Shown here: one piece after another, positions 1-63,780 of the stretch
How positions within the stretch are numbered: position 1 is the first letter of the stretch
How the letters are laid out: the number at the start of each line of letters is the position of its first letter
NCBI RefSeq assembly: GCF_965363235.1
Contig: NC_134847.1
Span: 58,560,439-58,624,438 of the forward strand
From: Mytilus galloprovincialis
Lineage: Eukaryota; Mollusca; Bivalvia; Mytilida; Mytilidae
DNA: 64,000 bases
Direction of reading: 5' to 3'
The notes under the pieces: generated by a model
What the model was told of the DNA's origin: nothing
Database searches by the model: none
What the model saw: only the letters and a program-made list of their open reading frames with translations
Made by a program: the position numbers and the translations under genes

Positions 1-1044
1 ATTCCTTATGAAAATCATATATTTCTTGAAAACTTAAAGACAAAAACAGTGTAAAACTTTTTGCTATCTTAAGCTAAATCAATAAAATCTTATATACTGG
101 CATAGACAATTTTCAATCTCAGGGTTTTATTAGATATTAAAATGTACATTTTGTGTATTCCACACACAAAAGTTGTAGACAGACTTACCATATAAACTTT
201 GATTTAATCCTTGAAAGAAGTATAGATTGCTAAAATAATTTATAAATTTATATTTTTTATATGTCCCAATACATTTAAATTCATTTAATTACCATCCTTT
301 TATGATTATTTGATTAAAATATTTATTCATTTATAGTCTTTTTACAATTAACATTTTTAAAAGCAAAATGACTTAAAACAGGATAAATCAAAGGGAAGTA
401 ACCAAATACACAAAGTTTTTATAACACAACGGCAGTTAGTTAGCCAGAGTAAACATCGTTGATTACCACCCAAGCTGTCAAGGGAAGCCATGTAATTATA
501 CTTCTTCTTTGATTTACAGGTAAAATTTAACACAGGTGTCAATTACACCTGTACGTAGTAAGAAATTATCAAATATGATGGCTGAAAATTTTCATTCATG
601 AAATATTTCATACACAGGAGTTTTTTCTGCTAAACGGGAGGACGGGAGGAGACCCCTGAAAACGGGATTATTGTACTCCCGTCGGGAGGTTCACATGTAT
701 GTGTATTCTACATGTATATCCAGGAAACCACAATCAATGGCTCATATATGCAATTGAAAATGAAAAAGCTCTTTTTAAATCAGTGCAGCAGTATTGACAC
801 ACTGAAAATATTAATATGTAAAGGTAGACAAAATTATCCCTTATCAGATATTTACATACTGTAAGTCATAATCCAAGATGCTTACAATATGAGTTCTTAC
901 AATAAATGCTACTTTTTCGTCTATTTGAAAGTGTTAACAGACTCCAGACTATTTTGTTTCTAATTATAACTGTATAATAAAATTTCCTGAACACAAGTGT
1001 TTTTCAAACAGTATATAAATAGAATAGAGATGTTTGTCACATAC
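1..1044. other. SMARCE1 intron (partial), no exon recognised
   Basis: The next SMARCE1 exon should start the HMG box (VWDQV...), and I find no match on the minus strand here, so it lies off the left edge. The stretch is AT-rich intron. A GGGAG-rich patch around 630-690 contains a CTCCCGTCGGGAG palindrome; no other structure was recognised. Confidence 0.6.
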
Positions 1045-22600: not shown

Positions 22601-25600
22601 GTTTTACATCTTAGATTTAATCTATACATATTTGACTTAATCAGGCATGAAGCAGTGCCACACCTTCTAAGATGATGCTGTTGAACTTTAACAGTTAATA
22701 TTAGAATCAGGGGCTCTTTTTCCCAAAAAAAAACTCAAAAGTAAAAATACTAGCAAGTCATACTCATTTCAGTATTACTAACTATAAATTTAAGTCGGAA
22801 AATTTTTTTTGAAATTTTTTTTTTGTTAATAATGAGAAACTGGTGATGATATTTGTTTGTCGATCTGTAAAATCTGTCAGCAATTATAAATATTTGTTAT
22901 GATTTTTATATAATAATTTTTTAATCAGCAAACAGAAGAAACTTGAAAGAAAAGAAAGTATCCAAAACAAAACATTAGAACCAGAAAATATAAAACCTGA
23001 TGAGGATGATCATAAGGAAGAAGAAGAAATGGATATCATGTCACAGTATCTTATACAACCAAGGGAAGGTACGGTATAAATAAGCTCTTGATAAAATTAC
23101 ATATCATGGCTTTTTGACGTCAAATATGTTGATCTGGCCTTAATAGCTGTGACATGGACATATCACTGACATCATAATGAATAAACTGATGTTGATAATT
23201 TTGACCCTAATTTATAGATATCAGCAGTCGAATCGGTATGATTTTTATGAATATACAAGGGTTTCAGGTTAGGTTTGAATAAAGGCTGTAAGCATTGCTT
23301 CCCATCGTACACCATGATTTTATGTTGTGTTTTTTAATGTTCAAGATTAATTTTTAGATCTGACATTTTAGAAAATACACAAGATAAAACAATGAAAGAT
23401 GAAGACAAACCTGCAACAATAGAACAAAAACCCGAAGAAACAGAGGCGGATGAAATGACTCAAAATCCTGATGGTAAGTTAGTATTGTTTGTCGTGTCAT
23501 ATTACTTAAAGTCAGTTATTGTGAAGTAGAATTTTTGCAGTAAGTTGTATTCCAGGTGACCCTGTTTTTCACAAAAGGCTGCAATATTTATATCTTAACA
23601 GCATGATTGTTCTGATAACATCTTTTTATCAATTATGTATGCACAGTTAACAGATGCCAGCATAACCACAGTACAATTGACAAAGCATTGAAACCAAGAG
23701 TTTTTGTGAAAACTGAGCATGTGCGAAAGCATAAAAAAACAAACCATGGATTAATTCTCAAAAATTGGAATTTTCTGTAGAATAAAGATTGTTTCAAAGA
23801 CAAATTTTAAAAGGAAGTACAAAACACTACATTAATATGTCATATCACAAATATTTTCAACTCTGTATGGCTTCAGAGGGTTGCGGCTCAATGAAATCAG
23901 TCTCTTCCTTTAGAAGTATAGATGTAAATACTAATTAATGTACCTGATATACATGTATTCATTGGCACTCTTTCCTCATCTTCTTATTTCTAAGTTCTTA
24001 TGAAGGTTAGAAATATCTTTTTTTATCCCTTTTCTATGTGACTGAAAAGTGCATGTGTATAAAAGTATTAAAAAAAAACATGTAATCAATGATTTACAAA
24101 TATTTTTAATACATAATTTTAGGTGACAGCCAGATACAGAAAAAAGTGTTTACAGGGAAATCATTTATGTTTTTTGGATTTGAGGAAGAGCAGCATACTC
24201 CATTAACAGAATTTGTAAATGAAGAAGGAGGTTTGTCTTAATTTCGAATTCTTATACACTTTCTTATTTCAGAGGCAATTGTATGAGTGTTAAAAATTTT
24301 TTTTATATGAAACTATTATTATTGTTTTGGTCCTGTTTTTGATGTTATTTTACAGAAATTGTACATTTTGTTAATAATTAAGATAATTTCTTGCAGTAAC
24401 TATTTAAAAATTTGAAATTGCAAGAACAATGATCTTAAATTTTCAGGAAAAGTTTATCAGGGGAACACTAGACTGGTACCAGATTATGGAGTTGTTCCTG
24501 TTGATGGATTTCCTGTGGACAAAACAGTTGGAGAAATAGCAACCAGTACTTGGCTGGTTTGTATTCAATGTTATGACTTATTTTTTATAAAGTTATAGGA
24601 TTTTACAAAGGCAATGAAACAGATCTAAAGTGTGATAAGTGTTGGAAAGTAGGCAGTTGTTGAAGGAAAAAAGAAGTGATATGTCTGAGTTTTAGTTTTA
24701 ACATATTTATTTATTGTGGATAAGGGAACAAGTTATTGCAACTTACTTTAATCTACAAGGGTGTCTTTAATGTGAAAGAGATATGGCTCTCTCTTAACAC
24801 AGGTCAGCCTTTTATTGTCCCCTTCCAATGGACTATCATCGTTTCCTCAAGACCATACTGTCAAATGGTGTCAGAAATATTTATGCATATTTATGCATAT
24901 TGATTTTAAAAGTTCAGTTTTTAACTAAGGAGTTTTATGCCCCATTTATGGACATTATTATACCCCCGCTTTAAAAAAGGGGGGGTATACTGTTTTACCT
25001 CTGTCTGTCCGTCCATCCGTCAGTCCGTCCATCAGTCCGTCAGTCCGTCAGTCCGTCCGTCAGTCAGTCCGTCCCATGAAACTTTCGTCACATTTTTCTC
25101 AGGAACTACACATCCACCCTTTCTGTAATTTGGTATCAACATTTATATATGTCAGCCATACCGTGTGATGCGTTTTCAGATTCATCACTTGACAACTTCC
25201 TGTTTACCGAACACTTGTCTGATTTTACACATGATAGCCAAGTTGAAAATTTTCGTCACATTTTTCTCAGGAACTACAATACAAGGATTTCTGAAACTTG
25301 GTTTCAGGATTTATATAAGTCAGCTATACCGTGTGATGCGTTTTCAGATTCATCACTCGACAACTTCCTGTTTACCGAACACTTGTATGATTTTACACAT
25401 GATAGCCAAGTTGAAAATTTTCGTCACATTTTTCTCAGGAACTACAATACAAGGATTTCTGAAATTTGGTTTCAGGATTTATATAAGTCAGCTATACCGT
25501 GTGATGCGTTTTCAGATTCATCACTCGACAACTTCCTGTTTACCGAACACTTGTATGATTTTACACATGATAACCAAGTTAAAAATTTTCGTCACATTTT

Positions 25601-28600
25601 TCTCAGGAACTACAATACAAGGATTTCTGAAATTTGGTTTCAGGATTTTTATAAGTCAGCTATACCGTGTGATGCGTTTTCAGATTCATCACTCGACAAC
25701 TTCCTGTTTACCAAACACTTGCATATTTTTACACTATTAATATTATCCACTTGCGGCGGGGGTATCATCAGTGAGCAGTAGCTCGCAGTTTCACTTGTGT
25801 TTTCTGATCTGTGTGTCTGATTTTTGATGAAGTTGAAATCCAATTAACTTGAAACTTATTAAACATGCTCCCTATGAAATGATCTTTGTAATTTTAATGC
25901 CAAATAAGAGATTATATCCCCTTTTCACCGTCCACTGAACATAGAAAATGATAGTGCGGATGGGGCATCTGTGTACTAGGGACACATTCTTCTGTTTTCA
26001 TTCTTTTTGAAGTAAGGGGGAGACAACAACAAACATGACTGTATCTTTAATGTATATACTTATCACAGTCTTGTATATTTTATATACATGTTGTCTTGGT
26101 GTGAGAAATGTAGTTATGCTTGTGATATTTTAGACTGAATATTGAAAAATTATCACATCGAGAAATTGAATATTTATTTTGAAAAATATCAAAGAGATAA
26201 ATCTTGATACTCAACTGAGCTGATCAAGCTTTAAAGCTGGAATAGTAGATTATTTGAACCTGAATATAGTCTTCGATGTAAAATTTCCAAATAATGAGGA
26301 TTTATTTCAGAAAAATTTCTTCTTTAGACCATCTGTTTGTTTATTATAAGGTTGAGCCTGCATTATTAAAATTCTTGCTGTTTTGGCATTGCTCACTATC
26401 ATTTTCACTTAGTTTTTCTCTTAATTTCATGAGTTGCTAGTTAGTAGTTGATGTGGTCTGATATACTATTATATTATGCACTATATTTGGTTATTAGTGT
26501 ATCATTTTTATGCCCCACCTACGATAGTAGAGGGGCATTATGTTTTCTGGTCTGTGCCTCCGTTCGTCCGTCCGTCCGTCTGTGCCTCTGTTCGTCCGTC
26601 CGCTTCAGGTTAAAGTTTTTGAAGAAGTTGAAGTCCAATCAACTTGAAACTTAGTACACTTGTTCCCCATGATATGATCTTTCTAATTTTAATGCCAAAT
26701 TATAGTTTTGACCCCAATTTCATGGTCCACTGAACATAGAAAATGATAGTGCGAAGTTCAGGTTAAAGTTTTTGGTCAAGGTAGTTTTTGATGAAGTTAA
26801 AGTTACATCAACTTGAAACTTAGTACACATGTTCCCTATGATATGATCTTTCTAATTTTAATTCCAAATTAAAGTTTTGACCCCAATTTCACGGTCCACT
26901 GAACATAGAAAATGATAGTGCGAGTGGGGCATTCATGTACTATGGACTCATTCTTGTTAAAAATATGTATTTTCTCATTTGGTAAAAAAGTGCAAATTAA
27001 AGATTTGTAAAATTCTAGATATTTTAATTTTGACTTTTGCTTTTCTTAAGCATTGAACTAATTATCTGTACTTGAAATGTACACATGAGCATTTATTTAT
27101 TTATTTATTACAGCAAATGTGTGCAGAATCTGACACACTTTTAGCAGTTAGTAGTAATCCACTGTTTTCTCCAGTTGACATCAACATTGAAGACAATCCA
27201 CTGGTGGACTGTATCCTTTCATTCAGGTGAGTCAGTAGGGATTGGAAAGTGATAAGGAATTATGTTGATCATTGGTTTATAAATTGAAATACATAAACAA
27301 TCAACTTTCTATAGAAATATGAAGAGTTGCATAAAGTTTTTTACTGAATTTCAATGACCACTTTTCATGATGCTGTCAGGTTAAATTTTTATGTATTTTA
27401 TAAATGAATTAAAATTCATTATTTGTGTATCATACAATATTCATTAACTTGGTGTCAACTGGTTGTTTTAACCAGATACAATATGTAGGTACCTGCAAAA
27501 TGATTTTAAAAGTGTTTATACATTGGAGTCATGTGCAAAATGAATGGGTATTTATATATTATAACAAAACATGTATATGCTTTGTCTAAGAATTCCAGTC
27601 TTAGACAGAAGATATATACAACTGCAATAAATAGATATGTATATTGTGTTTCAGTGGTTGGTTTGGAACAGAAAAGGAATGTCTGATGCATATTGCCCAG
27701 TGTATAGGTGCTCAGTAAGTTATTATTATAGAGAAAACAAATTTTGCTTGAATGGGGTACTTAACACTACAGGAAGATCTCTATGTTAAAACAATCGCAA
27801 CATTTTAATCACATTCTATTGTTAAGGAAATATTAAGCATCTCAATGATCAAAATTAGTGTTTGTCAAACATTATAAATCCAATTAAAAAAAAATCTGAG
27901 AAAGTGTGTAGTTCAAGTTTAGGGTTCATTTTATTCAAGGCGTTTGATACCTCCTTAAACTAACAACCGAACTCAAAAAGAATTATTTATTATTAACTAG
28001 GATAAGTGAAAAGCCATAATTGTTTTTATTGGATACAAATAATAACTTTCATCTCTACTGCTACAAATGTTGGGTATTAGAGATTAAGGTTTATCTTTTC
28101 CTATTGTCGCTTTATCAAATATAATTGAGTTGTTGTGCTTTACACATTACACAATTTTACCACCACAAAATTCAATTATAATTTAGACTCTTTAAAGCAG
28201 ACAAGACCTTTCTGTGTGAATTCAAAATGTCTAGATAACACTAAGCTTGTTTTAAATTAATTCAATTTTTCTTTAAAAAAAAAATTATCTTCAGAACCAG
28301 CTGGTCAGTGTGTTGGTTTTGTTCAAAAGAAGGTTCATATTAACATCACATAAACATTTTCTTGTCCTTATATGCATATCATATTTCTAAGAGTATGTTA
28401 ACCATCCCATATCAGTCATCATCAATGTATATAAAATATATATACTGTTAAGTGTAGTATTATTTTTCTTACAGGACGCAGGAATATTTTGTGAGAAATG
28501 CCAAAAAAGGACTTTTGCCCACAACCCATTTGATAACCAAGGAGGCCTCTGGTCAGAAGTACACTGCTGCCAAAAACTGGGGGATTCCAGCATTATCTAA

Positions 28601-37600: not shown

Positions 37601-40600
37601 AAACATGAATATTGTCAAATCCGTGTACAGAACAAGTTGTGAACACTACATATGGATTTTACCCGTTTGACAGAATTTTGTATTGGTGCATTGGTTTCCC
37701 ATATCAAAGCAAGGATTCTGGTATATCTTTATACAAGAGAGTTTCTCAAGTCATAATCATAATTAATCAAACATTTGAATAGAATGAATCCCATGAATAG
37801 TTGTTTTTTCAATCATCTTCTCCCTTAAAAAAAATTATTTAGTAATGAAATCTTGTATATATTTAACAGGGAAAGCATTAGAAAATCACTCAGGGCCGGA
37901 GCCTTCACAGAGTGTGCAGGTCACATGGGATGATCATACAGGAAGGTTAGATGTATAATATTTACTCTGGTTTACAGATTTTTAGACTTTTTAACTAATA
38001 AGCTTCCATATTTACTTTAGATTTTGAGGTTTTGGATTTAGAAATTAATAAAAATGAAAAACCACTTTATTGTTACCAATCAGAAGCAAATGTATTCTAA
38101 TGAATTTAATGAATATATTTTCTAATAATAGGCAATATAGGAAAGGTGTACTGACATAAGTAGTCTCTAAACACATTAGCTCCAAATGGAGCTTTCGTTA
38201 GTAGAAGCCATATTAACTATGTGTATCAGTGAGAAAAATGTAAAAGCATAAAAATATAGTATAATTCTGCCTCTGATGAAGGTCCTTTTCGGACCGAAAC
38301 CGGTCAGGCTATAAAACATCACCAGGCGCTGTTAATTATGTGTATTGGTATATATACTATATTTTTATATTTTCTAATAATGTTTGAATCTGTCAAAGAT
38401 GGTTTATTTAGTGTTTAGAGAAAGTTATAATTTACTGAACTGATAAATATTTTTGGGCATACAAATTTAAACTTTTCTGAAAGTTATTGCAATATAATAT
38501 AGAGTTAGAAGGCATTTTAAATGAAAAATCAATAACATAAAAAATATCCCTTTCCTTCCATTTATATCAATGCCGCTGCTAAATGTTTTACAGACTTGAA
38601 CAAGAAAAATTAGCTCACAAACTAGAACGAGCATGTAGCCCTACCCAGGATGTAGCTGAGTTCCTGGATGGGGAGTTCTCCGAAGAGGAGGAGGATATAG
38701 ATTATGAGGAAGGGTTACATGAACCTGAAGCTGAAGTTCCTCAAGTAAGTATAGCATTTTATTTCCATTTCATAGTTATTCAGACTTGCTTTGCATGTTG
38801 CTATCTGTAAATTTGGGGCAAACAAAATGTTTCAATAACTTTATACATGATTCAATAGATAGGAAGTACACAATTACTAATAAACCCTATAACTATGTGA
38901 TAATAAGATAGAAAATACATCTCATATACAAGTAGGTACAGATAATTTTAAACAATATGTTGGCTGAATTAAATATTATACCCTTTCTCTAAGAGTAGTA
39001 GCTAAATTGCAATCACCTTCACCTGTTCAAATAACAAATATTTTCAACACACTTTTCTCTGAATATACACAACAGCATGACTCCATATTTGTTCAGAAGC
39101 TGAACAGTGATGAGTTGTAAAGTGTATAGACTTCAAATTAGTCACATACACCAGACACTTTGAAATATGAATTGGGTATGTTACCTTGTTTGTCATTTTC
39201 AGGATTTGTTTTGTAATTCATACATTTAGCAAAATGTAAGATGCATGTCGAACAATGAATATTAGAGGTAAAACTGTAAATCATCAACATCAAATCAGAA
39301 CAGAGTGACAGCTGCAACATTTTTTTTGTTATAATATGATAAATTGCTAACATTACATGAGTACTGTATGATTATATTTTCTACTTTATTTGACAATTTT
39401 AAAGGAAAAACCAAAAGAAGAAAGAGTTCCAACTCCTGAAGGTCCATCTCTAGGTATATACTTTACCTAAATATTTTATAAAAAGTGAAAGAAATAACAT
39501 GTCTGTTGACTTTTGACAAATTGTTACAAAAAAAATATCAAAATTTCATTCAAATATAGGAAAAGAAGCAATAGTTTTATAACCCGGACAGCCTTAATAG
39601 AACAAACATAATTTCACTCAAATAGCAGATATAAACAATGCAGCAGTTATTGTTGTACAAGTCAGATTATTAAAAATCCATTTAGATGAAATTCAAATTA
39701 TTATATCCATTCATACAATATTTTTTAAACTTTAAAAGAAATGAGTGAATACAAAAATTAACAAATGAATATTACATCTGACAGTTTAGATATTAATGTT
39801 ATTTCTTGACTTTCAAAGAAAAGATAGAAAAGTTACTTGTGACAAGTTGAAGGCAAAGAATATGTTGTTTGTTTTAGCATTCCACAAGTCAAGAAAGGAA
39901 GAGAATAGAATTCCTTCCCCAGAACCTATCAATGAAGAGGAACCAGTCCAGAAACCACCCCCTGTGTTCATTATGTCTGGCATGGAACCAGCTGTAAGAT
40001 TTTATAAATCCTCTTATTTTTTTTTGTGTTTTGGGTGATTTTTATATTTGCATGAAATTTTTTTGATAGAGACAAATCGCATACTAAATTCCCAAAATGT
40101 TTGTAATCTGAAGAAGTAGAACTATTAATGTCTATGTTTCTTTTCTTAACATTCAAGTATTGATTAATTACTTAGTATGTAAAATAGATTTAAACTATTT
40201 CCAGAGATCATCCATTTCAGTGACTATATCATTACATCTTCACACATTACTTAAAATATAACTATAATATACCTTACATTTGTTGTTTATATTCTAGGAA
40301 AAAGATAATTATGGTGCTTTAGTAGAACAGCTTGGAGGGAAGATATTAGAATCTCTACACTTTGATTGTTCCTGTACACATCTAGTCATAGGTTTGTGGC
40401 CAGTACTTACATGTAGATTGTGTATTAAACAGGATTACTTTTATCAGTGTGTCCCAATTTCATCATATAATTCTCGATTAAAAAATGGAAGCTGAGAAAG
40501 TTGATATAGGAAAATCCTGCTTTCAATCTAGAAAATGATTGAAGCTAACAATTAAAAATTCTCCATGGAGGATTCTATATGATCTTAAATCTAATGTAGC

Positions 40601-47734: not shown

Positions 47735-50700
47735 TTAGAAGTAACCACCATGCTCTTTAGTGAGATGAGCATAACATTCGCTTGAAGTGGGATAATGGTC
47801 CAAACAAATCCAACAAATATTAGTTTTACATGCACTGCATGTCATACGATTACACCCTGAAATTTTCTCTATTAGTGTTGAACAATTTGGACATTTCTTA
47901 ATGTCTAGTCTACATTCCTGAAGCAATAGCCTTAGATTTTTATCATCAGCCTCCTTTGTTTCTGCTAATTTTACTTGTTCACATGATAAACCATCATGAA
48001 ATTGTTTTCGGCATCCTGTGCATATACGACTCTCACACTGTGGGCATGTGAATAAATTTTCCTTTTCTGTTGCCCGATAAATTATAAGACAATCGGGCGT
48101 TGTGCAGTATTTATATGCTATCTGATTTTTTGCAGCGAAAGAGCTGGTAGCTTTCTCTACTAATAGGTCAACTGGATTGTTTGTTTTATCTGCTATTTTT
48201 GTAATATCTTTCAACACCCACTTTTCTTCGCAACCTTCACTGCTGCAACACACAGGAAGAGAGTTGAGATCAGATTGGAACTGAAACTCAACGCATTCTT
48301 TACAATAGGAATGGCCACAAGCTTCTAATCTATACATTTTACCGTCCTCTATTTCACAAAAGCAAACAACACATTCTCTAGTTGTACTAGGTTGCAGAAC
48401 TTTTCCCTTCATTTTTAGTCCGGTTTCTTCAATAACCATTTGTATTTTCTCAATGACTATATGAACTGCCTTTTCCTCACCAGTAACTGTCAAAATATGT
48501 CCCCGACGATCAAGTTCAACATATTTTAAACCATATTCATTAACAAGCGTATTTAAATCATAACCATATCGCATCATGAGTTCTTTCATCACTCCAACTG
48601 GCTTGTCTGGTCCCTTCAATGTTATTTGTTGTGATATGCCGCTGCTAAGATCTCTTAAATACTTTGTTAACATTTCTGCACTTTTTTCTTGAGCTTCTGT
48701 TGGCCCATGGATTATTATAGAGAAATCCCGAGCATCAGTATGGATGATCGTGTTTGTCTCATTTTTCACTCTTTCAAACAATCTTTTGCCGCCCTGAGTA
48801 AACAATTTTTCCAATTGACCAGGCTGCTCTGTGTCATATCTCTTTCCTTCGATAACCTTTTCCACAACCGTTTTTGCTTTTATAGCGTTATCTCTGGACT
48901 CGCATTGCAACTCCACTAGCACGTTCCCATTTTTCAGTGTCTTTTTGCGATATTTAACATCCAAATTTTTGTCAAGCGTTTCAGAAAGATTGCTTAACGT
49001 TTCTTCGTGCATCGGAAAGAGATTTTTTCGAACAACAACTGAGGTCTTGAATTCTACTGTCATGGATACTGTTTCATAGTTAATCTTGAAACTGTTATGT
49101 ATGCCAGCATAAGCTGCCATCCCCTCTTCGGGTATGGAAAACGACACGAAGGCCAAGAAGGTAACGTGATTGTCTCTTGGAGGTTTTAAATCTAGATAAT
49201 ACGTTCCTGCTATGACATACTCATTCAATTTCGACTCAATGGTTTGCTTCAGAGATTTAAGTTCACTTTCATTTGTTTTTACATTCTTCTTTCTGACAGC
49301 TATATTCTCAATTGTACCTAATTCAAGTGATAATGTAGTAAGAAAAGCTGTGCGCAACTCATCTTCCGTAGTATTATTGCAAAGATTTGTAACATGGATT
49401 TCAGAGGCGTTTCCTTTGCCTTTTCTTATTCTTGCTGACGTACCCCTGATGGAAATCGATGCCTTGCATGCTCTTTGAACAATTGAAGAATCTGTAAATC
49501 GAATAAATGCAAACGTTGGACGTCTACACCATTCGATCTTTGCTCTCATAGTGCAAAGGCTCACTATGTCTTTTGTAGGCTGATAACCTATGTCTGGAAA
49601 TGCACTTATACTCTTATCCTTTGTCGATTGAACGGACGACTCAGCGTCTTCTTTTCGTTGATATGTTATTTTTCCCCATTTGGTCTTATCTTTGCTGTTT
49701 TTGAATTTATATGCATTGACAACGTTACCAAATTTTTCAAAGTATTCACGAATGTCCTTCTCCGATACAGAATTATCTGTAACGTTCACAACAACGGTCT
49801 TGTATTCATTTGGCATCAGAACATCAACAATTTCCATCCCTGCTCCAACCACTACTTTAACGCCTTTCTTTAAAGGTGAAAGGTAAAATTCATTTGTCTC
49901 GCCTTTCATTGTACCTTTTAATAAGTTCAAACGATCGTTTATCATAGCTTTAACTGTTTCCTTATTCTTGTCTGTCGCAAATGCTGTTATTTCACCGTAT
50001 TCCTTAGATGCCTCTATTGTAACAAAAGTTCCATCAAGTACTTGTCGCAATGTGTTTTCCAAATTTCGCAGTTCAGAATATCTTAAACCCACAAAATTCG
50101 AGAACATTTTTTCTCCAACTGCACAAAATACAGCTTGCTCAACCCTTTGACTTTGAATGGCATTGAAGTCGAATTTTAGCATATTATCTGCTAATGCTTT
50201 CTGTAACCACGAATCTTTCACTGGAGTAATGTTGGTTGCAAAATCCCGTGATGTTTTTAACACTCGCTCTATTACAATCCAGTCTGGTTGAAGTCCAAGT
50301 GTTTTTAAAGATGATGCTGGAAAGATTTGCACGATTTGGTCTTTCTGTACAACTAAATATCCGGCCTTGTCATGTCCTAGATAATGGCAAATGTTTTGTC
50401 TAAATATCTTGAACAACATCTCTTGAAGTTTTTCGTCAACATCTTTTGGTGTTTTGAGTTGAAACGGCATATGTATTCCTTGTTCTTTTTTCAGGACATT
50501 CAAAATCTCATTGACTGTCTCTCTTATTCCACGTAATACTTTATTATTAATTGAATTCTGACTACACCAATAACTTTTAGATTTTTCTTGTTGGCTGTGC
50601 CATTCACGGAATACTGCTAACATGGTCATGAAATCTCCTCCTTCGTGACAAAAACGGACTTTCCGTTTGTCAGCTTCGTTTTTTTGACTTTCTGATCCTG

Positions 50701-52009
50701 ATCTGTAAAACATGCTATTCGTTCCACAGCAAGCTGACAAAACAATCCCCTCAATCCCAACTCCTTCTTCTATAGCTTCATACACAAACGCACCGAATTT
50801 AGGATCGATCGGAAGCTTTGCTATCCATTTTCCTCGCTCGGTTATCTTATTGTCAGAAACAGCCCCAACAAGCTCCAAAGTTTCCATCGCTGTGTCTATT
50901 AAATGTTGTGATGGCTTTTGCACAAAGTCAAATTGTAGTGGATTAACCCCTAGCTCATATAGCTTAAGGAGAGCTTGTCCTAAGTGAATTCTTAAGATTT
51001 CTGGCTTTGAGTTTGTTTCCATATTGTTATAAGTGTTTTCTGTATATAGCCGATAACATTTACCTGGTTCAGTTCTTCCAGCCCGACCTTTCCTTTGTTC
51101 TGCTGAACTTCTGGTTATATTGGTTACGTTTAACGCGTTTATGTTCTTTTGTGGATCATATAACATTTCTTTTGCAACTCCAGTATCGATGACATATTTA
51201 ATACCAGGTATGGTGATGGAAGTTTCAGCGCTATTAGTAGCAAAAACTATTTTGCGTTTTCCTACGGGGCTTGGTTCAAATACTTTTTGTTGTTCTTGTG
51301 GTTGTAAACGTCCATGAAGAGGCAGACATATAAAGTTGTTCGTATCCTTGAAAGTCTTTTCAAAGTTATTGCAACATTTCTCGATTTCTAACGGCGATGT
51401 TAAGAATGTCAGGATATCTCCACTCTGCTCTTTTTCGTGGACATATACTGTTTTCTTTAATGCTGCGCTTTCATAATCTTCATCAACCTCCTTTTCAGTC
51501 GGCCAAATGACGTTTACCGGAAACATTCTTCCAGCAATTTTTAAAACAGGGCATGTACCAAAGAAATTTACAAATATTTCCGGTTCGATTGTTGCTGATG
51601 TGATTACAACTTTTAAGTCAGGTCTTTTAGTTAAACTTGTTTTGATCATTCCTAGAAGCAAATCAGTGTATATGCTTCTTTCGTGAGCCTCATCAATTAT
51701 AATGCATGCGTATTTAGAAAAGTTTTCATCTTTTAGGCAAAGATTTAAAAGCATTTGATCAGTCATGTAAATAATTTTTGTTGCATGTGACGTTTTCATC
51801 TGCATACCAACGTGATATCCAACTAGGTTGCCAACGGATGTGTTTAGCTCATGGGCAACTCGTGTAGCCAAGCTGGTTGCAGCAATTTTTCGTGGTTGTG
51901 TGCAAACAATCAATCCCGAATCTGCCAGTCCAGCTTGATATAAATATTGGGTAACTTGGGTGCTCCAACATAACTTAACACTAATCTGTATAATATGATA
52001 ACAGTACAT
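47735..52009 (-). CDS. DEAH-box helicase / RRM / RING-IBR-RING E3 ligase fusion, 5' end missing or in another exon
   Basis: Single open frame of 1424 codons. Helicase core: TQPRK (37-41, motif Ia), IIIDEAHERS (DEAH 106-109), SAT (138-140), TNSAETSITIPG (257-268, motif V), QRKGRAGR (305-312, motif VI), then helicase-associated and OB-type regions. RRM-like segments lie near 735-805 and 865-940. C-terminal RBR: RING1 from CVVCFCEIED (1213), IBR with CPQCESRICTGC, RING2 CPNCSTLIEKISGCNRMTC with the predicted catalytic Cys 1386. Plant DEAH11/12 share the helicase-plus-RBR plan. Family homology starts at S16-T-Q, exactly after where GSGK (Walker A) should stand, so residues 1-15 are not the true N-terminus. 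An acceptor lies at 51986-51987 (phase 0), another possible one at 51963-51964. The exon with Walker A was not found. Role inferred: RNA remodelling with ubiquitin transfer. Confidence 0.88.
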   Translation of the reverse strand: MYCYHIIQISVKLCWSTQVTQYLYQAGLADSGLIVCTQPRKIAATSLATRVAHELNTSVGNLVGYHVGMQMKTSHATKIIYMTDQMLLNLCLKDENFSKYACIIIDEAHERSIYTDLLLGMIKTSLTKRPDLKVVITSATIEPEIFVNFFGTCPVLKIAGRMFPVNVIWPTEKEVDEDYESAALKKTVYVHEKEQSGDILTFLTSPLEIEKCCNNFEKTFKDTNNFICLPLHGRLQPQEQQKVFEPSPVGKRKIVFATNSAETSITIPGIKYVIDTGVAKEMLYDPQKNINALNVTNITRSSAEQRKGRAGRTEPGKCYRLYTENTYNNMETNSKPEILRIHLGQALLKLYELGVNPLQFDFVQKPSQHLIDTAMETLELVGAVSDNKITERGKWIAKLPIDPKFGAFVYEAIEEGVGIEGIVLSACCGTNSMFYRSGSESQKNEADKRKVRFCHEGGDFMTMLAVFREWHSQQEKSKSYWCSQNSINNKVLRGIRETVNEILNVLKKEQGIHMPFQLKTPKDVDEKLQEMLFKIFRQNICHYLGHDKAGYLVVQKDQIVQIFPASSLKTLGLQPDWIVIERVLKTSRDFATNITPVKDSWLQKALADNMLKFDFNAIQSQRVEQAVFCAVGEKMFSNFVGLRYSELRNLENTLRQVLDGTFVTIEASKEYGEITAFATDKNKETVKAMINDRLNLLKGTMKGETNEFYLSPLKKGVKVVVGAGMEIVDVLMPNEYKTVVVNVTDNSVSEKDIREYFEKFGNVVNAYKFKNSKDKTKWGKITYQRKEDAESSVQSTKDKSISAFPDIGYQPTKDIVSLCTMRAKIEWCRRPTFAFIRFTDSSIVQRACKASISIRGTSARIRKGKGNASEIHVTNLCNNTTEDELRTAFLTTLSLELGTIENIAVRKKNVKTNESELKSLKQTIESKLNEYVIAGTYYLDLKPPRDNHVTFLAFVSFSIPEEGMAAYAGIHNSFKINYETVSMTVEFKTSVVVRKNLFPMHEETLSNLSETLDKNLDVKYRKKTLKNGNVLVELQCESRDNAIKAKTVVEKVIEGKRYDTEQPGQLEKLFTQGGKRLFERVKNETNTIIHTDARDFSIIIHGPTEAQEKSAEMLTKYLRDLSSGISQQITLKGPDKPVGVMKELMMRYGYDLNTLVNEYGLKYVELDRRGHILTVTGEEKAVHIVIEKIQMVIEETGLKMKGKVLQPSTTRECVVCFCEIEDGKMYRLEACGHSYCKECVEFQFQSDLNSLPVCCSSEGCEEKWVLKDITKIADKTNNPVDLLVEKATSSFAAKNQIAYKYCTTPDCLIIYRATEKENLFTCPQCESRICTGCRKQFHDGLSCEQVKLAETKEADDKNLRLLLQECRLDIKKCPNCSTLIEKISGCNRMTCSACKTNICWICLDHYPTSSECYAHLTKEHGGYF

Positions 52010-52520
52010 TAAATGTAACCTATGCGATTGTGGTGTTCATTGATTTTGATTAAAATACAGCTCACATTATTTACACGTAATATTTATATGTTTACTCTAG
52101 ATATGGTGGTAAAAGTAGGTGAAAATGATATCTTTTATCTGGATTATATTCACATTTGATTGTGACCACTTAGTTAACTATTACTATTTAATCATGTATT
52201 TTATACTATGATTATAGACTTTAAAGAAAAGTCTATTATCATTGCTGACGTTAATCTTTGGGGTTGTTTTTGTTGAAAACCTAACTGTTCTATGGGAACG
52301 AAAAAGCAGTCATAAACTAATGTATAAGAAAACAACAAACTGGTTATTTACATGCTTTAGCCATTGATTTATTGTGATTTAAAAAAAATAACAGAAACAT
52401 ACGACATTGGAGTATTTGGAACGACCAAAACAAATTATGATGTTACGGACCAACAAACATACAATATATGTATTCGTGTGTAGTAAATGCGTTTGGAGGG
52501 AGTCATTTATTTATTTAAAG
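52010..52520. other. 5' flank or intron of helicase-RBR gene
   Basis: AT-rich. I searched the minus strand for a GETGSGK-type Walker A exon ending in a donor and found none. Confidence 0.5.
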
Positions 52521-62612: not shown

Positions 62613-63780
62613 ATAAGTGAAACTGCAAGCTACTGCTCACTGATGATACCCTGGCCAAAATATTTCATTAAACAAGAAGTTGCTGCATGATGAATCTGAA
62701 AACATATTTTATCAACCCTGAAACCAAATTTCAAAAATCCTAATTATAGTTCCTGATAAAAAAAAAAGTGATGTAAACAAGAAGTTGTTGAGTGATGAAT
62801 CTGAAAACACATCACCTAGTATTGCTGACTTATATAAACCTTGAAACCAAATTTCAACAAGAGGCTGTCACAACGACAGCAAACCGGATTTATTAATATT
62901 TATTTGTGTCCTGGCAATATCACAAGAACCATTACTGATGAATGGTGAAAGTGAAAATCGTCAATATCAAATTTGACCTCCATTTTGTCATCAGTATCAA
63001 CATATCAAAATTTGAAAAGCTTAGATTGAATGGTTCATGAGTAAATGCAACAACGTGAATGGAAACACCATTTTACAATCTTTCAAGAACCATAACGCCT
63101 GAACGGTAAAAGTCAAAATCGTCATTATTTTACTTGACCTCTATTTTGTCATCAGTTACAACATATTAAAATTTGGGAAGCTGTGGTAGAACAGTTCATG
63201 CGTAAATGCACGGACACAGCTGGAAACTCCATTTTTCAATCTTTCAAGAACCATTACTCCTGAACAGTAAAGGTCAAAATCGTCATTATTGAACTTGACC
63301 TCCATTTTGTCATCAGTAACAACATATTAAAATTTGGGAAGCTTTGGTAGAACAGTTCATGCGTAAATGCACGGACACGACTGAAAACTTCTTTTTTTTC
63401 CATCTTTCAAGAACCATAACTCCTGAACGGTAAAAGTCAAAATCGCCATTATTGAACTTGACCTTCATTTAGTTGTCAGTAACAACATATTAAAATTTTT
63501 AAAGCTTTGACTGAACGGTTCATGAGTTAATGCACGGACAACTTTTGATTGCCGCCCGCCCGACTGCCCGACCGCCCGCCGTACATCCCCAAATCAATAA
63601 CCGACATTTTTGTCACAAAAATCCGGTTAAAAATCCTTGTGATGTAGTTCCTGAGAAAGATGCAACAAGAAATATTTATGGGACAGACAGACAGACTGGC
63701 AGATGGATGTGCAGACGGTGGACACTTTTTAAAGCAGGGGTATACACTTTTTTAAAGCGGGGGTATACAAAGACATATTT
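62613..63780 (-). repeat. GGGGGTATAC satellite element, inverted copy with a second satellite inside
   Basis: Reverse-complement landmarks of 24958-25800: GTGAAACTGCAAGCTACTGC at 62617, GAAGTTGTTGAGTGATGAATC units near 62680 and 62785, and AAAGCGGGGGTATAC near 63753. Between them lies a different tandem repeat of about 160 bp, each unit starting CAAGAACCAT(A/T)AC (62921, 63084, 63244, 63407), followed by a CCGCCCG-rich run (63550-63581). Confidence 0.82.

What the first reader, a model, noticed from the sequence alone, without database searches (positions are those of the whole stretch)
38248..38368. Hammerhead-ribozyme-like fold inside a TOPBP1 intron, framed by a perfect 16-nt inverted repeat
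Seen: stem I GCCT/AGGC, core CTGATGA, stem II GGTCC/GGACC, GAAA, short palindromic stem III ACCGGT and a cleavable C, in the right order. Perfect inverted repeats at 38248-38263 and 38353-38368 enclose it. Known: minimal-stem-III hammerheads occur in Penelope-like elements and in small retrozyme-like repeats of animals that make circular RNAs. Inference: an insertion of such an element in TOPBP1, transcribed in sense with the pre-mRNA. Caveat: an extra A before stem II.
Basis: partly seen in the sequence, partly recalled or inferred. Interest (0 to 1): 0.75.

Follow-up and report, generated by a model that had tools for sequence, protein, structure and literature searches.

The report
Twin-primed Penelope-type insert with hammerhead
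An intron of the TOPBP1 gene in this animal genome holds a 236-base jumping-gene copy that carries a small hammerhead-ribozyme motif, and the copy's back-to-front layout suggests that such elements are copied into DNA from two ends at once.

Summary
The motif is real: 38269-38309 has every hammerhead part in order, with cleavage predicted at C38305|A38306. It is the only hit of a strict descriptor in the 64-kb window. An exact-core pattern matches 121 times in the host genome, 0 in the reversed control.

The true unit is a 236-bp insertion, 38130-38365, flanked by a perfect 16-bp target-site duplication. Genome copies share Penelope-like features: TATA box plus hammerhead, fixed 3' tail, 5' truncation, tandem arrays, head-to-head arms. 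GIY-YIG loci here, taken as Penelope-like elements, carry the same minimal hammerhead with palindromic stem III (3 of 14). The family itself showed no long ORF, so I call it non-autonomous and Penelope-type, not a retrozyme.

Best mechanism: both cut target ends primed reverse transcription on RNA with an intact hammerhead, at two sites. One arm ends at position 223; the other starts at 98-113 in 15 of 16 inserts. Self-cleavage is untested. The strand-specific second start site is the part worth following.

The parts
38114..38129 (.). target-site duplication, left copy (TATATTTTCTAATAAT)
   Evidence: perfect 16-bp direct repeat flush with both element ends
38366..38381 (.). target-site duplication, right copy; its first 3 bases also match the element (microhomology)
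38130..38263 (-). direct arm: canonical positions 223 down to 90; holds the fixed 3' tail (ends ...TATATTGCCT at 38130)
   Evidence: 98-100% identical 134-bp stretches in most listed relatives; blast coordinates
38264..38365 (+). inverted arm: canonical 1 to about 102; starts at the inferred RNA start ATTCTG and carries the hammerhead
38269..38309 (+). minimal hammerhead ribozyme motif, type I topology, cleavage predicted at 38305|38306
   Evidence: 121 genome copies of the core; cross-family compensatory pairs
38280..38280 (+). extra A between A9 and G10.1
   Evidence: present in the aligned copies that cover it; L081 has C there
38299..38304 (+). palindromic stem III ACCGGT (one A-U pair plus self-complementary CCGG)
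   Evidence: palindromic CATG/GCGC counterparts in GIY-YIG loci
38248..38263 (.). left copy of the 16-nt inverted repeat = overlap of the two arms
38353..38368 (.). right copy of the 16-nt inverted repeat; last 3 bases belong to the target-site duplication
38209..38211 (-). ATG that may be an ancestral ORF start; closed after 11 codons in most aligned relatives
   Evidence: sequence of relatives; open 82-118 aa in copies that match the whole 59-aa peptide
38594..38743 (+). downstream exon of the gene (AG..GT), coding [26 protein letters not shown]...
   Evidence: TopBP1 identity from other exons

Best explanation
The stretch is a short, non-autonomous Penelope-type retroelement insertion in a TOPBP1 intron. 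Inferred steps: (1) Transcription starts about 31 bp downstream of a TATA box in a 1.15-1.3-kb source unit, giving an RNA that begins AUUCUG and folds into a minimal hammerhead followed by stem-loops. (2) An endonuclease/RT supplied in trans, probably from one of the genome's GIY-YIG elements, cuts both strands of an A/T-rich target. (3) One cut end primes at position 223, in the loop region of a second stem-loop, and copies 223 to about 90. The other cut end primes at about 102, in the 36-nt loop of a 20-bp stem, and copies back to the RNA's 5' end, straight through the hammerhead cleavage site. (4) The two cDNAs are joined head to head and the staggered cut becomes a 16-bp duplication. So the hammerhead was intact in the RNA that made this copy, and it is now a passenger in sense orientation in the TOPBP1 pre-mRNA. 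Its own cleavage as a monomer is probably slow or absent. Shown: anatomy, duplication, relatives, end positions. Inferred: promoter use, trans enzyme, order of priming, weak activity.
For: Perfect 16-bp duplication. Over 44 inserts, 19 have a duplication score of 11 or more versus 0 of 865 mismatched flank pairs. Of 16 inserts with an inverted arm, the first base after the duplication lies at canonical 98-113 in 15 (exception L057, 26). Six further loci show inverted arms ending at 103-113 by BLAST, and L015 has one starting at the same stretch behind a 17-bp duplication. Inner ends of both arms vary from insert to insert, so each inversion looks like a separate event. The first flank base after position 223 is A in 35 of 42 (background 0.348), and the RNA's next base is also A. 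TATA box at -31 to -21. Five arms stop at +1/+2 by eye: window, L004, L014, L016, L017. Fold of the 245-nt RNA: z -3.88, 0 of 200 shuffles as stable; site 98-113 unpaired in the 36-nt loop. The same minimal hammerhead with palindromic stem III occurs in 3 of 14 GIY-YIG loci. L081 has a GIY-YIG domain, a YIDD motif by eye and head-to-head arms. Published PLE biology matches: TATA-bearing pLTR, tail, shorter inverted pLTR, TSD (PMC3846280, passages); both strands cut and extended, internal RT start in a stem-loop, unprocessed RNA as dominant template in vitro (PMC11167929, parts 1-2 of 4).
Against: No copy of this family was found with a long ORF: longest open frame over the tail is 126 aa among the 150 matches scored of 194 candidates. 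The enzyme that mobilises it is unknown and a LINE cannot be formally excluded. L048 has three junctions at 40-41, only 2-3 nt from the predicted cleavage bond (42|43), with short tandem pieces. None lies exactly at 43, but a part for cleavage in some copies is not excluded. Position 223 is in a small 3-bp hairpin in the minimum-energy fold and unpaired only in the centroid. Within the family, pair counts give almost no covariation (1 pair changed on both sides). In 25 of 44 inserts no strong duplication was found, perhaps from age. The in vitro PLE study saw no difference in start site between strands (PMC11167929), unlike here. L081's ORF matches GIY-YIG but no RT model in Pfam at E<=10 and no solved structure. 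Copies were collected with tail-containing queries, so the 223 end is partly a selection effect; the 98-113 start of the other arm is not.
Confidence: 0.84

Rival explanations
1. Non-LTR retrozyme: a 150-450-bp circular-RNA element whose monomer is bounded by hammerheads, inserted in the intron.
For: Small size, hammerhead, duplications longer than 4 bp; retrozyme-type hammerheads exist in this genome; L048 has junctions close to the cleavage bond.
Against: Units are about 1.15-1.3 kb in arrays (one of 959 bp in L071) or a single ~223-bp copy, not 150-450-bp head-to-tail repeats. The window arm runs through the cleavage site. The retrozyme-type hammerhead here has a different core family in 361-364-bp arrays and is seen by Rfam Hammerhead_1, which this one is not.
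Confidence: 0.05
2. Self-priming on an antisense or read-through RNA (proposed for A. vaga Penelope, PMC3846280), rather than priming by the two target ends, made the head-to-head arms.
For: Some inserts turn around near the RNA 5' end (L014, L046, L065), and head-to-head order is the one that paper explains this way.
Against: The window junction is a plain join without a long palindrome, and the direct arm stops about where the inverted arm starts (overlap about 13-16 nt; also L002, L069, L074), as expected if two cDNAs share one template. The outer end is fixed while the inner ends vary.
Confidence: 0.15
3. A LINE (not a PLE) mobilises the family, as for SINEs, with ordinary twin priming.
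For: Duplications of about 12-18 bp, 5' truncation and inversion also fit LINE insertions (general knowledge).
Against: No A-rich or microsatellite 3' end; fixed internal 3' end continuing as ATTGATTTTTC in arrays; the hammerhead/tandem/head-to-head set is that of PLEs; 15 of 16 inversions start at one place, unlike the scattered L1 inversions (recalled).
Confidence: 0.1
4. Chance resemblance to a hammerhead in A/T-rich intron sequence.
For: No Rfam hammerhead match.
Against: 121 exact-core copies versus 0 control; 1 versus 0 by strict descriptor; four pairs changed on both sides against L081, reached by 0 of 500 shuffles.
Confidence: 0.01

Closest known systems
Penelope-like elements (EN+ PLEs; Pen2a_Av of Adineta vaga, PMC3846280; Poseidon PAc of Anolis, PMC11167929)
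   Same: TATA box in the repeated unit (Pen2a_Av), hammerhead (PAc), short tail at a fixed 3' end, tandem and head-to-head arms, inverted arm shorter than the direct one, target-site duplications, RT start inside the RNA, RNA with intact hammerhead as template.
   Different: No RT/GIY-YIG ORF found in this family. The inverted arm starts 110-125 nt upstream of the tail end (37 bp in Pen2a_Av; 30-40-bp tail in the D. virilis report). Here the two start sites are strand-specific. Hammerhead has an extra A after A9 and lies about 100 nt before the possible ORF start.
Minimal type I hammerheads of PLEs (Cervera and de la Pena 2014; Lunse et al. 2017; seen only as cited in PMC7761336 and PMC6155905 passages)
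   Same: Minimal helix III; palindromic stem III suited to dimers (the last recalled).
   Different: One extra nucleotide between A9 and G10.1; neither paper is held, so I could not see whether that is listed.
Metazoan non-LTR retrozymes (PMC7229834, sections 13, 14, 17)
   Same: Type I hammerhead, non-coding, low GC, duplications longer than 4 bp.
   Different: Unit size, arrangement and hammerhead class differ.
CChMVd plus-strand hammerhead (PMC3705267, passages)
   Same: Extra A at the same core position.
   Different: Viroid, with loop-loop contacts (passages).

Membership tests
Hammerhead ribozyme | conserved core CUGANGA...GAAA...UH between three helices | tested here: met
   one extra A after A9
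Hammerhead ribozyme | scores above Rfam gathering threshold | tested here: not met
   L081's hammerhead also missed, so uninformative for this minimal type
Hammerhead ribozyme | compensatory changes in stems I and II among relatives | tested here: met
   4 of 10 pairs changed on both sides, all against the single relative L081; none within the family's HHR helices
Hammerhead ribozyme | self-cleavage | not testable with these tools
   needs transcription assay
Penelope-like element | ORF with telomerase-like RT and (in EN+ PLEs) GIY-YIG endonuclease | tested here: not met
   longest open frame over the tail 126 aa among 150 matches scored of 194 candidates; hence filed only as non-autonomous, Penelope-type
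Penelope-like element | pLTR-like unit with TATA box and minimal hammerhead, continuing into the ORF start | tested here: inconclusive
   TATA box and hammerhead present in relatives; the ORF start is only a possible one
Penelope-like element | fixed internal 3' end (tail), 5' truncation, target-site duplication | tested here: met
   3' end partly selected by the queries
Penelope-like element | tandem and head-to-head inverted arms | tested here: met
Metazoan retrozyme | 150-450-bp tandem repeats, monomer bounded by hammerhead cleavage sites | tested here: not met
   L048 has short pieces joined near the cleavage bond
Metazoan retrozyme | accumulates as circular RNA | not testable with these tools
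   no RNA data

The most novel reading that the evidence does not exclude
In this family the two target ends prime reverse transcription at two fixed, strand-specific places on the RNA, each in the loop region of its own stem-loop: 223 for one strand, 98-113 for the other. The head-to-head arms of Penelope-type elements would then be a programmed, dual-primed integration product that reads past an intact hammerhead, rather than an accident or self-priming.
Probability: 0.55. Interest if true: 0.6.

Novelty: new member of a known kind. Interest (0 to 1): 0.42.

Why it matters
How Penelope-like elements finish integration is open, and their inverted arms have been explained by self-priming. A family with dozens of young inserts, clear duplications and two sharply placed start sites turns that into a testable model: mutate either loop and one arm should disappear. 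The window copy was also made from RNA whose hammerhead was still intact, which bears on what the hammerhead does in these elements. For TOPBP1 itself there is probably little effect.

Tried and rejected
Rejected: chance fold; retrozyme; flippable cassette or inheritance of one ready-made inverted source (inner junctions differ among the inserts); element bounded by the 16-nt inverted repeat (relatives end elsewhere). Searches of the paper library on Penelope with twin priming, inverted arms/second strand and non-autonomous PLEs in molluscs listed no title that names this family; listings only, so weak evidence of absence.

Full report
Observation. The motif runs from G38269 to C38309 with a type I layout: stem I 4 bp, core CTGATGA, one extra A, stem II 5 bp, GAAA, ACCGGT and C38305 as the cleavable base. 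A strict descriptor finds it as the only hit in the window on both strands, with 0 in the reversed window and 0 in 292,825 reversed bases of loci. Rfam models do not see it. They also miss the equivalent motif in the GIY-YIG locus L081, while they give sub-threshold hits to classical type I hammerheads of the same genome.

What the unit is. The flanks carry a perfect 16-bp direct repeat, 38114-38129 and 38366-38381. The own genome (1.385 Gb; contigs C1-C14 appear in the listings) holds many relatives: 78 matches from 40 scored of 355 candidates, 150 tail-peptide matches scored of 194 candidates, and 121 exact hammerhead cores against 0 in the control. In most relatives listed the two halves of the window copy lie on one strand as one ~223-bp sequence that starts ATTCTG, holds the hammerhead, and ends TATATTGCCT; only L002 shares the window's arrangement there. 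Upstream are CCGCCGGTT-type repeats and a TATA box at -31 to -21; arrays have units of about 1.15-1.3 kb in which the 3' end continues ATTGATTTTTC. In the window the hammerhead half is inverted relative to the tail half. The 16-nt inverted repeat is the stretch (canonical 90-105) present in both arms, its last 3 bases being shared with the duplication.

How it inserted. One search lists 57 insert ends; 13 (L003, L012, L015, L016, L020, L026, L029, L030, L031, L045, L048, L054, L069) were dropped from the duplication test because an array, locus edge or incomplete chain hid the left end. Of the remaining 44, 19 have a duplication score of 11 or more against 0 of 865 mismatched pairs. Sixteen of the 44 have an inverted arm; its first base after the duplication is at 98-113 in 15 and at 26 in one, L057 (for L059, L065 and L068 no duplication was scored there and the BLAST edge was used). 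Six more loci, L045, L047, L048, L051, L069 and L079, have inverted arms ending at 103-113 by BLAST; L015 fits too. A 25-nt TA-rich inverted match in L054 (69-93) was not counted. Inner ends vary freely. This is what two separately primed cDNAs would give. In the window, L002, L069 and L074 the direct arm stops about where the inverted arm starts, as if one RNA served both primers; in arrays such as L071 both arms exceed one unit and two RNAs, or displacement, are needed. The base after position 223 is A in 35 of 42 flanks (2 of 44 unmatched), background 0.348, and the RNA's base 224 is A too. Caveat: queries contained the tail and asked for ends at or beyond 215, so ends at 223 are partly selected; given one arm at 223, no second arm in these 22 loci also ended there.

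RNA. The 245-nt RNA folds better than all of 200 shuffles (z -3.88), with a 20-bp stem whose 36-nt loop holds 98-113. Site 223 lies inside the region closed by an 11-bp stem: unpaired in the centroid, in a small 3-bp hairpin in the minimum-energy fold. Pair counts over 31 copies show 97.1% pairing but almost no covariation, so the stems rest on energy and conservation. Five arms stop at +1/+2 by eye (window, L004, L014, L016, L017) and none that I saw lies exactly at 43, so those templates still had an intact hammerhead. Against a simple reading, L048 has three junctions at 40-41, 2-3 nt from the cleavage bond, in short tandem pieces.

Kinship. The genome has many GIY-YIG domains (147 matches among 150 scored of 1001 candidates). 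In L081 the GIY-YIG ORF has a YIDD motif by eye but no RT match in Pfam at E<=10. It is followed by a minimal hammerhead with its own stem letters and palindromic CATG, repeated head to head. L091 and L094, taken downstream of long GIY-YIG frames, carry minimal hammerheads with palindromic GCGC; 3 of 14 such loci in all. I take these loci as PLEs from GIY-YIG, hammerhead and layout. L089/L090 and L092/L093 have look-alikes with altered cores by eye, not counted. Aligning L081 with this family, 4 of 10 pairs change on both sides (0 of 500 shuffles reach that), but all four come from one relative. No match of the window's family opens beyond 126 aa, so I do not file it as a PLE but as a non-autonomous element that inserts like one.

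Literature. PMC3846280 (passages) describes TATA-bearing pLTRs, a tail, a 37-bp shorter inverted pLTR and TSDs in rotifer Penelope, and suggests self-priming. PMC11167929 (text parts 1-2 of 4) shows a PLE that cuts and extends both strands, starts inside a stem-loop, and uses unprocessed RNA, with no strand difference in start site. PMC7229834 (abstract, sections 13, 14, 17), PMC7761336, PMC6155905 and PMC3705267 (passages) supplied the hammerhead and retrozyme comparisons. The strand-specific second start site is the one point here that goes beyond what I saw in these.

Gene context. Neighbouring exons match TopBP1 structures, and an AG/GT-bounded exon follows at about 38594-38743. The hammerhead is in sense with the gene only through the inversion. 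A mussel-like bivalve is my guess for the host, from the retrozyme arrays of 361-364 bp against ~350-390 bp in Mytilus (PMC7229834) and 14 large contigs; the species was not tested.

Noticed in passing
G000, e.g. C3:90225225-90225976 and C9:87678690-87679445; also L042 (1492-1535) and L075 (2575-2618): Classical type I hammerheads (CTGATGAGTC...GAAACGCGTC): 111 pattern matches, 1 in the control, most of those listed of this type, some in 361-364-bp tandem arrays: a retrozyme family like that of Mytilus.
   Followed up: partly
G000, e.g. C11:69430588-69434135; L081: A second minimal hammerhead family (CTGATGACGGTGCCCTAGGCACCGAAACATGTC): the pattern gives 108 matches, 0 control; most listed are this sequence, one (C2:107473507) is a variant of the window's family. 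About 1.07-kb arrays with head-to-head ends; L081 couples it to a GIY-YIG ORF.
   Followed up: partly
window 47735-52036 (-): Single 1433-codon open frame with helicase, RRM, KH_DEAH11 and IBR domains: a DEAH11-like RNA helicase/RBR protein next to TOPBP1.
   Followed up: partly
L048 1880-2110: Short tandem pieces (canonical 40 to about 91) joined within 2-3 nt of the hammerhead cleavage bond; could record template jumps or a cleaved or circular RNA.
   Followed up: partly
L042, L043, L049 (5' ends at canonical 60-61): Three truncated inserts stop just upstream of the 20-bp stem; possibly RT stalling at its base.
   Followed up: no
window 25079-25734, 26614-26923, 62923-63540: Tandem repeats with 161-169-bp units, not examined.
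   Followed up: no
L093 about 590-690 (reverse strand reading): tRNA-like stretch (GGTTCGAATCCC) near a GIY-YIG element's end, possibly a SINE.
   Followed up: no
L026 (family body): Long C-run/G-run hairpin flanking a short palindrome inside the 1.17-kb unit.
   Followed up: no
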